A DNA stretch of 64,000 nucleotides from Haladaptatus sp. R4 (lineage in GTDB: Archaea > Halobacteriota > Halobacteria > Halobacteriales > Haladaptataceae). Shown here piece after piece: positions 52,375 through 62,440 of the stretch. The first letter of the stretch is position 1. Each line of letters begins with the position of its first letter. Under the pieces are notes generated by a model. That model had not been told where the DNA came from. It saw nothing but the letters and a program-made list of their open reading frames with translations, and did not search any database. The position numbers and the translations under genes are program-made. Location: positions 62,001-126,000 of the forward strand of contig NZ_LWHG01000011.1 of the NCBI RefSeq assembly GCF_001625445.1. The letters are read 5' to 3'.

Positions 52375-55300
52375 TTACGTCGTTCGAAGATGATTCGTCG
52401 ATGGCTCGTAGACCTCCCCTTTCTGTTTCAGCTTGTCGATCTCGTGTTCCGCCTTCGACGGGTCCATGTTGATCTCTTCCGCCCGATCGAGGACGACATC
52501 GACCGGTGCGCCATCGTCGTACTCCTCCTCGATACTCGCAATGAGCTGTTTGATGTTCTTGATTCGATCCCGTTGCGTTTTCGAGGTTCCCGTTTCCACC
52601 ACGTCGGCGTCGAACTGCCCGGTTTCGGGGTCCACGCCGATATCTTGCATACAGGACCGAGCGATTTCGATGACGCGATCGGCGTCCTCCTGTTCGACCG
52701 TATCCGAAAGTCGAACGCGTGCGCTCGCCTCGGCGAGGCGGACGAGTGCCTCCAGTTTTCGGGCCGTGACCGGAATCGGCGCGTCCTCGTCCACCCCTTT
52801 CGACCGTAAATCCACGTAGAAGTCTTGAATCGCCTGCTGGGCCTCCGTACTCATCGTCGGATAGACGTTCGATTTCGAATAGGCGATGTACTTCCGCAGG
52901 AGTTCGGCGTCGATGGCCGGAGCCACCTCCTCGGTCTGGCTGTTGACCTGCTCTTCCGTGATGTTCGGCGCGTTGATTTCGGTTCGCTGTGTGTTCAACT
53001 CGCCCGCGAAGTTGGTCTGAAGGATGTGTTCCGCGAGTTGTGAGTCGTGATCCGGGTCCGGTTTGTCCGTCACCGTAAAAATCAGGTCGAACCGTGAGAT
53101 GAGCGCCGGTTCGAGGTTGATCTGTTCGGCGATGGATTCGTACTGGTCGAACCGCCCGTACTTCGGGTTCGCTGCGCCCAGAAGCGAACAACGGGATTTT
53201 AACGTCGCGTTGATCCCGGCTTTGCTCACGCTGATCTTCTGCTGTTCCAGTCCCTCGTGCATCGCGGAACGTCCTCCGGACGCATCTTGTCCAACTCGTC
53301 CACCGCCGCGATACCCTTGTCCGCGAGGACGAGCGCACCGGCTTCGAGCGTCCACTGCTGGCCGTCCCCGAAGTCGTCGCGGACCGCCGCCGCCGTCAGC
53401 CCTGCCGAGGACGAACCCTTCCCGGAGGTGTAGACGGAACGCGGCGCAATATGTTGTATATATGACAACATCTGGGAGTTATGTGAGACGATGTTGTTCG
53501 TGAGATAGTTGTGCGTCCCTTCGATTTCGAGGTCGTACACCCACTCGTACTCAGGTGTGAGTTCTTCGACGGATTCGATTTTGTCCCACGAGATATCGCT
53601 CTCGGCTAGCCGACGTAGCGCATTCACATCCCCCGTGACTTCCAGTGCTTCGTCGATTCGATCGAGAACGACTTCCTTCGCATCAGCAACGTGCCCGCCA
53701 TCCGGAGCGACCGCGTTTCGTTCATAGTAACTGATGGCCGTCTGCGTAACAGACATCTCGTCGGACAATTCCTTCTGCGAGATATCTAACTCGTCACGGA
53801 CGGCGCTGATTTCGTCCCAGTTCCCATTTTCGATCCGCCTTCTGACATCTGCAAGCCAATCGCACCTGGTTTCGAACGCCGTAACTACTTTTTCGAGACT
53901 GGTTCGACTGGGATTTCTATCGCCCCGTTCGTAGTGTTGATACGTCGTCCGCGGCACACCACAGTCAAACTGCGATAGTGCGAGTGACTCCCGTACTGTT
54001 TGAAGTTCGTCAGACGTAACTGGAATTACATCGCGGTTCGTATTACCGATCGTCCCGTCAAACTCCATTGCTGTGAGCGGTTTTCTATCGGTAACGAATC
54101 CGATGTTCTCGACGTACGTTTCGAACTGTTTTCCACCGATCCGAAGCCGATAGCTCCCGTTTTTGCGTTCTTGGAGCGATGTCTCGATTCCCTCCGCGAG
54201 TAACAGACTTCGAACGTTTTCCAGTAGTATCTCGCTTGTCGATGCGACTGTAATTTCCCTCTGTGTCACCGAAACGTGGCACTCCGAATCGATGTACGCT
54301 TTCAGGAACGCCTGTTTGACTTCCGAACTTGCTCGCATGAGCGCGTCCGGAACTCGTTGGTTCGAGGATGACTCTAGAATCGATGGTTCGAAGCTCCGGA
54401 GGAAACTCACGAACTCGCCGGAGGAACACATCACCTCTTTCGCCGACTTTCCGTCGTGTGACTCTCGGATCGTGTAATTCAGCTTTAGCCGGTCGAGTGC
54501 ATCGCACGCATCCTCTAGTATCTCGGCGTCGTTGTTCGTGATCGACACGAATCCAGTGTTGTTCTCTCGAAGCTCGACGTACCCTTCTGCGATGATATAG
54601 CCGATCAGCCGTGCGAGAGATGGAGTCCATTTCTCCGGAGGATCGAGCCGAATTGCGTTATGCGATTTGGACCGGCGGTACTCGACATCGAGTTCATCGT
54701 TGGATTCGGTTGGTATCTTTCTCGGAGTTGCGATGAAATCTCCATCTTTCAATTGCTCCGCCCGCTCCGCTATGAACTCCCCATTGGATTGTACGAACAA
54801 CGGATGTGAAGGAGTTATTTCGAGTTCCGTTCCGCTTTCGGTGCGAACTCGGTACATCGTTTCCGGCGCTTCTCGTTTCCACACCTTCGTTGCGTGCTGT
54901 TCCCCAACCGTCCCATCGTCTTGCATCGATGGCACCGTGATATCAACCTCATCGTAAACGCCGTCGTCTATCGGTTTCGGGTCACTCAGATTCTCTTCTA
55001 CGAGTTCTCGAATCCGGACTTCACGACCGTCTGCAAGCGTGACGTTCGTGTCCCCTTTAACACATTTACCCGTACCAGGGTCACCGATTAAAAGCATGTG
55101 CAGGTCGCCGCGAATTCGCGACCCGTCGGGGAGGTGCTTGGTCACACCGGAGAACAACTGGAGGATCATCGCCAACTTCTCCTGCTCGTAGCCGTAGATG
55201 GCCGGGGCGATGGATTCGACCATCTGCTCGTAGATGTCACCCTCGTTCGAGAGTTCGATGATTTCCTGTTTGTCCTCGTCGGTGATGTCCATGTCCTCGA

Positions 55301-56057
55301 ACTCCTCGTCCTCGATTTCGACCGAGACACCGTCCATGTAGACGTCGAAGACGGCGGACTTCTCCTGGCCGTTCCCTTGCTGTTCGAGGTGGAGTATTCC
55401 CGTCACGATGACGTGGTCTCCGGGGGAAACCTGTCCCGTGATGTCGTCCTCGATGTGGATGTCGATGCTCTGTGGAGTTTCACCGCCGCGAAGCCCTTCC
55501 GGACTCTCTTGGACGCGAATCTTCTGCGAGTCGATGAACTCGGACTGGTCGAAGTTGATGCGAAACGGTCCTTGCCGTTCACAGCCCTGACATTCGTGCG
55601 GTTCTTGAAAGTCTCCACCCGCCTGCGGGATGTGCGTTAGCGTTCCACAGCGTTGACATTCGAACGCTGCTTCCTGAATCTTCGGTCGCACGCCGGTCGC
55701 CTTGCGGACGATTCCTTGTACGCTCACCATCGTGTTGACGTGCCGGGCACGGATCGCGCGGATATCCGTGTGTTCCGGCAGTCCACGAAGGCGGACGTGC
55801 GCTTGCCCGAGACTCACGTCTACGGGAAGGTCGTACAGACGGAGCGCTTCCTCGGCGTACTCCTGTAACTGCTGTGGTTGGGCGAGATAGTCGTCGGCGA
55901 TGTCCGCATCGTATCGGTAGAGGTCATCCCAATCGACGTGCAACGAACGCTTTTCGTTGGGATACTGCTGGGCCAGATCCCCGATCTGGTCGCTGTAGTA
56001 TCGCCGATAGAACTGCTCGAACCGATCTATCAGTTCCGTATTTTCCGCGCGAGCCAT
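52375..56057 (-). CDS. mcm: replicative helicase MCM, with intein and an apparent frameshift
   Basis: First frame (56057-53226): N-terminal MCM domain with zinc site 'CQRCGTL...CQGCE', then Walker A 'GDPGTGK' at residues 325-331, interrupted by an intein, then 'SQMLSYIQHIAPRSVYTSGKGSSSAGL' and Walker B 'AVDELDKMRPED'. Second frame (from about 53270) resumes with 'RSAMHEGLEQQKISVSKAG' and the Arg finger 'SRFDLIF', ending with the winged helix at 52375. One base is missing near 53270 (the family reads ED-RSAMHE). Corrected total is 1227 residues, 698 after splicing. Loss of the gene should be lethal, so a sequencing error is the simplest explanation. Confidence 0.92.
53478..55064 (-). mobile_element. 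529-residue intein in MCM Walker A, with LAGLIDADG endonuclease and HTH modules
   Basis: Begins at Cys332 ('CVKGDTNVTLADGREV', block A) and ends 'NNIVSHN' before extein Ser, so splicing residues are present; block B is 'ITPSHPLF', block F 'YDLEIEGTHNYLTNN'. The endonuclease has 'LIGYIIAEGYVE' and 'FLKAYIDSECHV' as its two LAGLIDADG helices, each with an acidic residue. Between it and block F lie two XRE-like helix-turn-helix units ('TTYQHYERGDRNPS', 'VTQTAISYYERNAVAPDG'). The reading frame is intact. Insertion after the Walker A Lys matches a known MCM intein site. Confidence 0.92.
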
Positions 56058-59166: not shown

Positions 59167-59406
59167 GAGACATGCTACACACCGGAGCTATTTCAGCGAT
59201 TCGAACGACACGGCGACACACGGTCGAAAAATCGGCGTGATAGACCGTGGCATCACTCGAAGAAACGTGACCCTACCGATCTTCAACCGGGCAATAACAG
59301 CACTGTAACGCCGTTATTCTCGCAATACCGTTTTACAACCGGCTCATAACAAAGCCGGTCCGACCGGTAGCCGTGGACAGAGCGCAGTAGCGCTACAAGG
59401 TAGCAT

Positions 59407-59583
59407 ATGAAAGGCACGCAAGAAGAAGAACTCCCACGGCGTTTCGACGAGGACGTTATCCTCGAAATCGAAGACGGTTCCGACAGAAAGCGACCGCTCG
59501 TTCGAATGACCGATACACGACGGGACGCCGCGTGGGTATCGGCGTCCATCGACGCCGTTATCTCGCTCTCCGAATATCGTTAG
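59407..59583 (+). CDS. 58-residue acidic haloarchaeal protein
   Basis: ATG 59407 to TAG 59583 encodes 58 residues: 'MKGTQEEELPRRFDEDVILE' then 'IEDGSDRKRPLVRMTDTRRDAAWVSASIDAVISLSEYR' in shorter pieces. Mixed charge, probably one helix at the end. Its stop overlaps the cupin stop by 4 bases (convergent). I have seen such short proteins in haloarchaeal genomes but cannot name the family. Confidence 0.6.
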   Translation: MKGTQEEELPRRFDEDVILEIEDGSDRKRPLVRMTDTRRDAAWVSASIDAVISLSEYR

Positions 59584-59942
59584 ACGAGCTGAATTTCATC
59601 GTCCCCGTTCGGCACCGCACAGATGAACGCACCGGGTTCGTCGCTCTCGTTTCGATACCAGTGAACTACTCCCGCCGGAATCAACAGTGAATCCCCAGCG
59701 CTGACTTCGTACTCCTCGTCACCGATGCCGACGACGTACTCGCCTTCCAGCACGAACTGTTCGTGTTCGACTTCGTTCGTGTGTTCGGGCACTGTCGCGC
59801 CCGCTTCGAGCGTGAACCGCCGGATGGCGAAGTTCGGCGCGTCCTGTTCCTCGCCGATGAGCACTCCTTTCGCCATGCCGTCGGCGGCCCCGACGGGTTC
59901 GTAGTCGATGTCGTCCGCGTTTCGCACGATAGGTTCGGACAT
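59580..59942 (-). CDS. cupin-domain protein
   Basis: A 120-residue single-domain cupin. Motif 1 is 'TVPEHTNEVEHEQFVLEGE' (His-Glu pattern with metal-binding His/Glu), motif 2 'VSAGDSLLIPAGVVHWYRNES' with the conserved Pro-Gly and His. Such proteins bind a metal and may be enzymes or sensors; no more can be said. It begins 24 bases after the stop of the TnpB-like gene on the same strand, so the two may be co-transcribed. Confidence 0.86.
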   Translation of the reverse strand: MSEPIVRNADDIDYEPVGAADGMAKGVLIGEEQDAPNFAIRRFTLEAGATVPEHTNEVEHEQFVLEGEYVVGIGDEEYEVSAGDSLLIPAGVVHWYRNESDEPGAFICAVPNGDDEIQLV

Positions 59943-59966
59943 ACTCGCCCGTTCGAAGGCGATGGG

Positions 59967-61178
59967 CTAAGGTTTTTGCACCGCTTCCAGTTCCTCGTTC
60001 GGCACGAACTCGCCGTCGGGCGTCACTCGACCGGATGCCAGCGCACAGTATTTCGCGCCGACGCCCCGCGAGGAGAGCGGCCCGCGTCGGATGCAACGGA
60101 AGCCGACGTTCTTCGCCGCGTTGTAATCGTCGTTGGCTTCGTTGCCGCATTTCAGACACTCGAACCGGTTGTTCTCCACGTCCCGATTCTGGGGGTGTGT
60201 GAATCCGCACGACGTACAACGCTGACTCGTGTATTCGGGATTCACCTGTACGACCGTGATGTCCCGCTCGGCCGCTCGATACGCGACGAACTCGAACAGC
60301 CGTTCGAACGTCCGGCGATGGAACCGGGTCGCCTTCTCCAGCGTCTCCTGTGTCCCTTCGAGTTCGCCGAACGCGATGACCGAACAACCGTGTTCCTCGG
60401 CTTCAGAGACGATACCGCCCGCGACCTCGTGGAGTTCGTTCCGGGCGAAGTTCCCCATGCGTTCGCTGGACCGTCTGAGCGTTCGTCGTGCGCTTCGGGT
60501 GTCCGTCTCGCGTAGATCGGCACGGAGGTCGGCGAACTCGGCGTGTCGGTGGGCGAGTTCTCCGCCCGAGAAAAAGTGCGCCGTGCTCGTCACGGCGAGG
60601 TTTTCGACGCCGAGGGAGACGCCGAGGACGGTCGAGTCCTCGGTCGGTAGTTCGACTTCGGGACGCGGGCGTCGGAAGCCGAGATGCAAATCGAAGTTCC
60701 CGTCGCGGTAGTGAAGCGTGCTCTTCGCCGGTTCCCATCGATCGTCGTTCAGATACTGCGACTGGTAGCTTCCCTCCGGCATCACGAGGCGACAGCGAAC
60801 GCGGTCGCCGGTCGTGGTCAGACTGATGTTCCCGTCGTCGAACAGCGTCAGCGTCCGACTGTCGTAGACGACGGTCGGGCTGGTGAACTCCGGCTTCTCC
60901 GCGTCGTCACTGCGTTCGAGCGCGCGCTTGATGGCTTCGGCGGCGCGGTGGGTGGCGAGGACGGCGTGCTGGCTTCCCAACTCGGTACGCTCACGCAACG
61001 GTTCGTACGCCAGTTGCTGGACTTCGTTCCGCGTGTGACAGACACCCCATGCGACGTTGACCGCGATCTGGCACCCGCGTTTCCACTCGCGCACCATCGA
61101 CAGCAGTCGCTCGTGGTCGTCTGCCTCGACCGCGAGGCGCGTTACCGCCGTTCGCCTGAAATACTCGGGACCGCTCAC
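59967..61178 (-). CDS. nuclease-dead TnpB-family protein (IS1341/OrfB-like)
   Basis: A 403-residue TnpB homologue. The zinc ribbon is intact (Cys321, Cys324, Cys341, Cys344 in 'CTSCGFTH' and 'CLKCG') and so is 'PEYTSQR'. The RuvC nuclease is not: motif I reads 'VLGVSLGVENLAV' with Ser188 where TnpB has Asp; motif II reads 'VIAFGELEG' with Gly271 where the Glu of 'FEDL' should be; motif III 'DDYNAAKNVG' keeps Asp351. Two of three catalytic acids are gone. There is no TnpA, and the cupin gene begins 24 bases downstream, leaving no room for a right transposon end. Either a domesticated RNA-guided binder (TldR-like) or a decaying transposon gene; the open frame favours the first. Confidence 0.88.
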   Translation of the reverse strand: MSGPEYFRRTAVTRLAVEADDHERLLSMVREWKRGCQIAVNVAWGVCHTRNEVQQLAYEPLRERTELGSQHAVLATHRAAEAIKRALERSDDAEKPEFTSPTVVYDSRTLTLFDDGNISLTTTGDRVRCRLVMPEGSYQSQYLNDDRWEPAKSTLHYRDGNFDLHLGFRRPRPEVELPTEDSTVLGVSLGVENLAVTSTAHFFSGGELAHRHAEFADLRADLRETDTRSARRTLRRSSERMGNFARNELHEVAGGIVSEAEEHGCSVIAFGELEGTQETLEKATRFHRRTFERLFEFVAYRAAERDITVVQVNPEYTSQRCTSCGFTHPQNRDVENNRFECLKCGNEANDDYNAAKNVGFRCIRRGPLSSRGVGAKYCALASGRVTPDGEFVPNEELEAVQKP

Positions 61179-61273
61179 GCTATTTTCTCCCCAGAGCGCC
61201 CCCTTGAATACTTCGGGACGTCTCTCCCCGCTCCGAGACGAAGTTTAAGGCGTCTCAGATGCAATATTCCCCC

Positions 61274-62440
61274 ATGAGAAGTTTCAAAATCGGGAGCGCG
61301 TTCGGCATTCCGATACAACTCGACCTCACTTTCCTGCTCATCCTCCCCATATTCGCGTGGCTCATCGGAACGCAGGTTTCGTACTGGGTCACCATCCTGA
61401 ACGACCTCTGGGGCCTCGGATTAACCGCCAGTCCGCTCTCGTCGGGAATGATGCCGTGGTATCTCGGTATCGCCGCCGCGATCGGTCTGTTCGCGGGCGT
61501 CATCCTCCACGAACTCGGCCACTCCGTCGTTTCGATGCACTACGGCTATCCCATCGACTCCATCACGCTGTGGATCTTCGGCGGCATCGCGCGACTCACC
61601 GACCAACCGGAGGAGTGGTCCGAGGAGTTCTTCATCGCCATCGCCGGTCCGGTCGTCAGTATCATCCTCGGCGTTCTCTCGTTTGTCGCTCTCTTCGTCG
61701 TTCCGTCGGGCTTCGATGCCGTTCGGTTCGTCCTCGGCTACCTCGCGCTGATGAACATCGTCCTCGCCGCCTTCAACCTGCTTCCCGGCTTTCCGATGGA
61801 CGGCGGACGCGTCCTGCGCGCGCTTCTCGCGCGAACGCGCCCGTTCGCTCAAGCGACGCAAATCGCGGCCGAGGTCGGCAAACTGTTCGCCATCCTGTTG
61901 GGCATATTTGGCCTGTTCGGCGGGAACATCATCCTCATCGGTATCGCCTTCTTCATCTACATCGGCGCGACCAGCGAGGCTCAGCAGTCGGTGCTCTCGG
62001 CGACGTTCCGCAACGTTCGGGTTCGTGACGTGATGACGACCGCGGACGACCTACACACGGTTTCGCCGGACACGTCCATCGCCGAACTCCTCGAAACCAT
62101 GTTCCGCCAGCGCCACACCGGCTACCCGGTCATCGAGAACGGCGAACTCGTCGGCATGATAACGCTGGACGACGCCCGGAGCGTGCAGCAAGTCGAGCGC
62201 GACGCCTACACGGTTCGGGACGTGATGTCCACGGAAGTGAAGACGATTCCCGCCGACAGCGACGCGATGGACGCGTTCGAAACGATCCAGCAGAACAACA
62301 TCGGTCGGCTTCCCGTCATCGGTACCGACGGCGACGTGGCCGGAATCATCTCTCGCACTGACCTGATGACCGCGTTCAACATCATCAACAAGAGCGGGCG
62401 TTCGGAGGACGAGTTCGCCCTCCGCGAACAGCCATCGTAG
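61274..62440 (+). CDS. site-2 protease (M50) with CBS domains
   Basis: A 388-residue membrane metalloprotease. About six helices include 'GVILHELGHSVV' (HExxH zinc site) and 'NLLPGFPMDGGRVL' (the third zinc ligand Asp). Two CBS domains follow ('VRDVMTTADDLHTVSPDTSIAELLETM' and 'VRDVMSTEVKTIPADSDAMDAFETIQ'), which probably sense adenine nucleotides. It cleaves membrane-embedded substrates. ATG 61274 gives the family start 'MRSFKIGSAFGIPI'; ATG 61259 is an alternative. Confidence 0.9.
   Translation: MRSFKIGSAFGIPIQLDLTFLLILPIFAWLIGTQVSYWVTILNDLWGLGLTASPLSSGMMPWYLGIAAAIGLFAGVILHELGHSVVSMHYGYPIDSITLWIFGGIARLTDQPEEWSEEFFIAIAGPVVSIILGVLSFVALFVVPSGFDAVRFVLGYLALMNIVLAAFNLLPGFPMDGGRVLRALLARTRPFAQATQIAAEVGKLFAILLGIFGLFGGNIILIGIAFFIYIGATSEAQQSVLSATFRNVRVRDVMTTADDLHTVSPDTSIAELLETMFRQRHTGYPVIENGELVGMITLDDARSVQQVERDAYTVRDVMSTEVKTIPADSDAMDAFETIQQNNIGRLPVIGTDGDVAGIISRTDLMTAFNIINKSGRSEDEFALREQPS

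What the first reader, a model, noticed from the sequence alone, without database searches (positions are those of the whole stretch)
59967..61178. TnpB homologue with two of three RuvC catalytic acids replaced, coupled to a cupin gene
RuvC-I has Ser188 for Asp and RuvC-II has Gly271 for Glu, while the frame, the zinc ribbon and motif III are intact. No TnpA and no space for a transposon right end: the cupin ATG is 24 bases downstream. Nuclease-dead TnpB proteins (TldRs) in bacteria have become RNA-guided repressors of nearby genes. In TnpB loci the guide RNA overlaps the gene end, so a guide here would run through the cupin start. This could be a haloarchaeal RNA-guided regulator.
Basis: partly seen in the sequence, partly recalled or inferred. 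Interest (0 to 1): 0.75.

Follow-up and report, generated by a model that had tools for sequence, protein, structure and literature searches.

The report
Dead TnpB kept as archaeal gene
A jumping-gene DNA cutter in salt-loving archaea has lost its cutting site and its guide RNA, yet every well-sampled species of one archaeal family keeps it as an ordinary, selected gene, so it has probably taken on a new job, most likely binding DNA to control genes.

Summary
It is not decay. One intact orthologue sits at one locus in 27 of 28 genomes of its family (Haladaptatus, Halomicrococcus, Halorussus; the exception is 62% complete), with dN/dS about 0.14. The catalytic acids went stepwise: RuvC-II Glu to Gly in 27/27, RuvC-I Asp to Ser/Ala in 9/9 Haladaptatus, RuvC-III Asp to His in four of these.

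The RNA-guided reading is not supported in its usual form. Active relatives (about 50% identical) have a clear omega-RNA over the gene's 3' end. In the dead clade the terminal hairpin, the GTTGAY motif, the pseudoknot partner and the synonymous-site constraint are gone, and a covariance model that finds omega-RNAs of TnpBs only 36-42% identical to this protein finds none at Haladaptatus loci.

The cupin link is old gene order. Outside the family the S2P protease and cupin genes are a compact divergent pair; TnpB landed between them.

Best reading: a domesticated, nuclease-dead TnpB that lost its cis guide RNA and works as a DNA-binding protein, perhaps on its own invariant promoter. The mechanism is inferred.

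The parts
59967..61178 (-). nuclease-dead TnpB-family protein, 403 aa, GTG start
   Evidence: 27 intact orthologues; dN/dS 0.14
60615..60617 (-). codon of Ser188, in place of the RuvC-I catalytic Asp
   Evidence: S/A in 9/9 Haladaptatus, D in Halomicrococcus and Halorussus
60366..60368 (-). codon of Gly271, in place of the RuvC-II catalytic Glu
   Evidence: G in 27/27; the neighbouring acid is not conserved (GKL, GER, GDL also occur)
60126..60128 (-). codon of Asp351, RuvC-III acid, retained here (His in four other Haladaptatus)
60147..60218 (-). zinc ribbon C321, C324, C341, C344, intact in all 27
   Evidence: RuvC-III/zinc region dN/dS 0.036 in Haladaptatus
61203..61213 (-). invariant promoter element AAGTATTCAAG, 24 bases before the GTG start (position of an archaeal TATA box for a leaderless transcript)
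   Evidence: present in 27/27 promoters, 1-3 copies per genome; TTCAA is also the core of the left-end target TTCAAC of active relatives
59943..60100 (-). stretch where an omega-RNA and guide would lie by homology; no recognisable omega-RNA remains
59580..59942 (-). cupin-domain protein, 120 aa, ancestral neighbour
   Evidence: Cupin_2 1.6e-19
61259..62440 (+). site-2-protease-like M50 membrane protein with CBS domains, divergent ancestral neighbour
   Evidence: synteny

Best explanation
An IS200/IS605-type tnpB landed between the divergent S2P and cupin genes in the ancestor of the Haladaptatus-Halomicrococcus-Halorussus family, lost its transposon ends and omega-RNA, and was kept as a host gene. 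Shown: single-locus vertical inheritance, purifying selection, stepwise loss of the catalytic acids, loss of the cis omega-RNA signature, and retention of the REC and WED domains, zinc ribbon and overall fold. Inferred: the protein works without a cognate cis guide RNA, as a DNA-binding protein through the REC/WED face that reads the target-adjacent motif (TAM) in TnpB, and acts as a transcription regulator. Its own invariant promoter, whose TTCAA core matches the target motif of active relatives, is the most likely first site, possibly with the head-to-head S2P gene.
For: Orthologue in 27/28 family genomes, and in 0 of the other 265 order genomes at comparable scores (one 53% hit, at the level of active TnpBs). 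Dead clade is one side of a 100-supported branch and follows taxonomy. dN/dS 0.14 in both genera groups, tail 0.06-0.13. RuvC-II Glu lost in all, RuvC-I next, RuvC-III next. omega-RNA model R1 scores 96-198 bits at active loci it was not built from, at most 20.8 at dead Halorussus loci, and makes no match at the gene's 3' end at E 0.01 in Haladaptatus. GTTGAY motif 0/27 against 21/21. Synonymous O/E over the 3' end: active 1.23 (0 of 315 other windows as high), Haladaptatus 1.04 (83 of 323), Halorussus 0.87 (323 of 323). RuvC domain net charge fell from -1 to -8/-11 while REC stayed at about -1; 52 of 58 REC positions conserved in active relatives are kept. Promoter 11-mer identical in 27/27. 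Model pLDDT 80, best PDB matches Cas12f and ISDra2 TnpB.
Against: No expression, binding or phenotype data. The promoter element sits where a TATA box belongs, so its constancy may need no protein. A guide RNA changed beyond recognition, or supplied in trans by an unrelated locus, cannot be excluded. Residues that contact the TAM could not be mapped one to one. Model pTM is only 0.56.
Confidence: 0.5

Rival explanations
1. An RNA-guided repressor of TldR type: the protein still binds a guide RNA, either a strongly diverged cis RNA over the 3' end and spacer or one made elsewhere, and blocks transcription of a target gene.
For: Same starting point as TldRs: dead RuvC, intact REC/WED/zinc ribbon, strong selection, loss of the transposon. 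Homologous stem 1 pairs slightly above codon-shuffled level in the dead clade (0.67-0.70 against 0.55-0.60).
Against: All tested omega-RNA hallmarks are gone. Synonymous sites at the 3' end are not constrained, and are faster than average in Halorussus. The stop-cupin spacer is not conserved. No cognate omega-RNA stands out elsewhere in the own genome (best 20.6 bits), and five family genomes have none at E 0.01.
Confidence: 0.17
2. A domesticated protein with a role other than transcription control, for example RNA binding, genome maintenance, a partner of the S2P protease or cupin, or a competitor of active TnpBs.
For: Selection and retention of a zinc ribbon and OB-like WED domain fit several nucleic-acid roles; the dead clade's tail became a protein-level feature (dN/dS 0.06-0.13 against 0.27 in active).
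Against: No positive evidence for any one of these; several carriers hold no other copy of this subfamily at E 1e-60, so interference with active copies is not a general role.
Confidence: 0.25
3. Decaying transposon remnant without function.
For: Catalytic acids and transposon ends are lost.
Against: 27/27 orthologues have intact frames, dN/dS 0.14 equals that of active relatives, the zinc ribbon is invariant, and both promoter and locus are conserved across three genera.
Confidence: 0.02
4. Still a nuclease, with a rearranged active site using the neighbouring Glu272.
For: Altered RuvC-II sites are said to occur in some TnpBs (own recollection of the literature, not read here); most orthologues read FGEL with an acid next door; Halorussus and Halomicrococcus keep both Asp residues.
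Against: The neighbouring position is Lys in L076, and the motif reads GER or GDL in others; Haladaptatus also lost RuvC-I, and four species all three original acids.
Confidence: 0.03

Closest known systems
TldR (TnpB-like nuclease-dead repressors; fliC- and csrA-associated, PMC13418256)
   Same: TnpB fold with inactivated RuvC, freed from the transposon, kept as a host or prophage gene; REC, WED and zinc ribbon retained.
   Different: TldRs are described as keeping guide-RNA and DNA binding with an adjacent gRNA; here the cis omega-RNA signature is lost. The neighbour gene association is ancestral. It is chromosomal, family-wide and archaeal.
Active haloarchaeal IS200/IS605 TnpBs with omega-RNA/sotRNA (PMC12558985; loci L017-L038)
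   Same: About 50% identity over the full length, same start region, same domain order.
   Different: Those have D/E/D active sites, a TTCAAC-flanked left end, and an omega-RNA with pseudoknot, right-end hairpin and GTTGAY end; none of these is at the dead loci.
ISDra2 TnpB (8h1j, PMC10097598)
   Same: Same fold and zinc ribbon; Foldseek E 5.7e-16.
   Different: ISDra2 has D191/E278/D361 and a 247-nt omega-RNA; here two acids are gone and no such RNA is found.

Membership tests
TnpB protein family | TNB zinc ribbon and RuvC/OrfB sequence homology | tested here: met
   Pfam TNB 5e-20 (OrfB_IS605 below its cut-off), NCBIfam guided_TnpB above cut-off; fold
TnpB RNA-guided nuclease | D/E/D RuvC catalytic triad | tested here: not met
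   S188 and G271
TnpB RNA-guided nuclease | omega-RNA over the 3' end of the gene | tested here: not met
IS200/IS605 (IS1341-type) element | recognisable left and right ends around tnpB | tested here: not met
   right-end hairpin and GTTGAY absent; left-end block GCGGTAGCGCGGAGTCC of active copies not seen in the short upstream gaps
TldR | RuvC-inactivated TnpB homologue | tested here: met
TldR | cognate guide RNA encoded with the gene | tested here: not met
   (by homology to the nearest active omega-RNAs)
TldR | new stable association with a non-transposon gene | tested here: inconclusive
   synteny is stable, but the neighbours were adjacent before the insertion
TldR | RNA-guided DNA binding and repression | not testable with these tools
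   needs RIP-seq, ChIP-seq and expression data

The most novel reading that the evidence does not exclude
A TnpB that evolved into a guide-RNA-independent, sequence-reading DNA-binding regulator: the target-motif face of an RNA-guided nuclease turned into a stand-alone transcription factor that controls its own promoter, fixed in a whole archaeal family.
Probability: 0.28. Interest if true: 0.85.

Novelty: new variant of a known kind. Interest (0 to 1): 0.62.

Why it matters
Exapted TnpBs known so far (Cas12, TldR) keep the guide RNA. A family-wide archaeal TnpB that lost nuclease, transposon and cis guide RNA but is still under strong selection would show another route out of the RNA-guided world. 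It leaves ordered intermediates (one, two and three acids lost) in living species, so the question of what a TnpB is worth without guide and cut becomes directly testable.

Tried and rejected
Rfam at gathering thresholds found no omega-RNA even at the active positive-control loci, so it says nothing here. A regulon of the AAGTATTCAAG box was sought: the second copy in the own genome (L085) was looked at and extra copies in the family are few and scattered. The idea that the box is the old cupin promoter was tested: 12 empty S2P-cupin intergenic regions lack it. Genomes with about 1-1.2 kb between S2P and cupin were checked for a second TnpB; the four looked at hold unrelated ORFs. The cupin-helicase gap was aligned for a guide-like RNA; it holds a small convergent ORF and a shared promoter-like block, nothing omega-RNA-like. 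Mapping ISDra2 TAM contacts residue by residue failed because the profile alignment to ISDra2 begins at RuvC. The original TldR paper and the 2023 TnpB classification paper are not held, so earlier mention of this clade there cannot be excluded.

Full report
Observation. The ORF at 59967-61178(-) is a complete 403-aa TnpB-family protein. Alignment with active relatives and with solved Cas12f/TnpB chains places Ser188 at the RuvC-I Asp and Gly271 at the RuvC-II Glu; the zinc-ribbon cysteines and Asp351 of motif III are present. The stop and the cupin ATG are 24 bases apart.

It is not decay. One orthologue, always an intact frame, is in 27 of 28 genomes of the GTDB family (Haladaptatus, Halomicrococcus, Halorussus); the missing one is 62% complete. 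In 293 genomes drawn from the order, nothing outside the family scores alike except one 53% hit at the level of active TnpBs. The tree puts the 27 on one side of a branch with support 100, and inside it they follow the genera. Median pairwise dN/dS is 0.144 (Haladaptatus group) and 0.148 (Halorussus), the same as in active relatives, 0.138.

Stepwise inactivation. Gly at RuvC-II is invariant (27/27), so Glu was lost on the stem. Ser or Ala at RuvC-I is in all nine Haladaptatus; Halomicrococcus and Halorussus keep Asp. Four Haladaptatus (L056-L059), a subclade, also have His for the RuvC-III Asp. The acid next to Gly271 is not conserved (Lys in L076), so a shifted catalytic Glu does not rescue the site.

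Guide RNA. Active relatives share a sharp right end ending in GTTGAY, after which sequences diverge. Their last 200 nt form two stems in the coding region, a right-end hairpin with compensatory changes, and a loop GTCARC able to pair with GTTGAY (the pairing of loop and end motif is my reading, and matches the pseudoknot between second hairpin loop and TEM described for Halobacterium omega-RNAs, PMC12558985). The covariance model R1 scores 96-198 bits at active loci it was not built from and finds omega-RNAs at many TnpBs in family genomes that are only 36-42% identical to the query protein (compare coordinates). At dead Halorussus loci it reaches at most 20.8 bits. At Haladaptatus loci no match at the gene's 3' end reaches E 0.01; only sub-threshold fragments appear. 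GTTGAY is absent near all 27 dead stops against 21/21 active. Pairing of the homologous stems is 0.98 in active copies (0.72 and 0.65 when codons are shuffled) and 0.65-0.72 in dead ones (0.55-0.74 shuffled). Synonymous constraint over the 3' end is far above the rest of the gene in active copies (O/E 1.23, no other window as high), ordinary in Haladaptatus (1.04) and the lowest in the gene in Halorussus (0.87). The own genome has no convincing omega-RNA of this type elsewhere (best 20.6 bits), and five family genomes have none at E 0.01. So the cis guide RNA of the ancestor is gone; an unrecognisable or unrelated RNA remains possible.

What selection keeps. In the dead clade the RuvC domain is the least constrained part (dN/dS 0.18-0.22 against 0.10 in active) and turned acidic (net -8 to -11 against -1). 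REC keeps its charge and 52 of 58 positions conserved in active copies. The zinc-ribbon/RuvC-III stretch has dN/dS 0.036 in Haladaptatus. The tail, disordered and poorly conserved in ISDra2 (PMC10097598) and RNA-constrained in active copies, is now held at the protein level, dN/dS 0.06-0.13. The AlphaFold model (pLDDT 79.8, pTM 0.56) matches Cas12f and ISDra2 TnpB over its length.

Locus history. Outside the family, S2P and cupin are divergent neighbours with at most 174 bp between them in 25 of 54 genomes that hold both; in 12 more they are divergent with 1.0-3.6 kb between. The four of these looked at hold unrelated genes. In the family the dead TnpB sits between the two; Halomicrococcus has the cupin but not the S2P gene alongside. 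In Haladaptatus the cupin follows closely; in Halorussus the distance runs from tens of bases to more than 1 kb, and the cupin lies outside the fetched stretch in three. So the cupin coupling is inherited order, with no fixed operon.

Promoter. AAGTATTCAAG, 24 bases before the GTG, is identical in all 27 species although the rest of the intergenic sequence is not. It sits where an archaeal TATA box would be. TTCAA is also the core of TTCAAC at the left end of active copies, and the empty sites lack it. It may be a fossil of the insertion site, a TATA box, a binding site of the protein, or all three. This is a lead, not a result.

Mechanism. Shown: domestication, nuclease loss, cis omega-RNA loss. 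Inferred: guide-free DNA binding through REC/WED and a regulatory role. I put 0.5 on that reading, 0.25 on another nucleic-acid or partner role, and 0.17 on an RNA-guided repressor.

Prior knowledge. The held literature describes TldRs as keeping guide-RNA and DNA binding (PMC13418256) and haloarchaeal omega-RNAs at active tnpB genes (PMC12558985). I found no description of this clade, but two key papers are not held.

Noticed in passing
window 53226-56057 (-) and 52375-53355 (-): The MCM helicase gene holds an intein with LAGLIDADG and two HTH_3 domains, and its frame breaks shortly after the intein by what looks like one missing base; the rest of MCM continues in another frame. Possibly an assembly indel in an essential gene.
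   Followed up: partly
window 59390-59590 (+) and about 59300-59400: A small convergent ORF (about 58 aa) between cupin and helicase is conserved across Haladaptatus and Halorussus, with a conserved promoter-like block holding TTTGTTAT, CCGGTTG and GAATAACG repeats between it and the helicase.
   Followed up: no
L163, L167, L162, L166 (between S2P and cupin): In other haloarchaeal families the S2P-cupin gap has also taken up unrelated genes of about 1 kb, one kind resembling a universal-stress-type protein, so this gap seems a repeated landing site.
   Followed up: partly
[quoted passage not shown] they lie at promoter distance from the cupin start and may be the cupin's own promoter.
   Followed up: no
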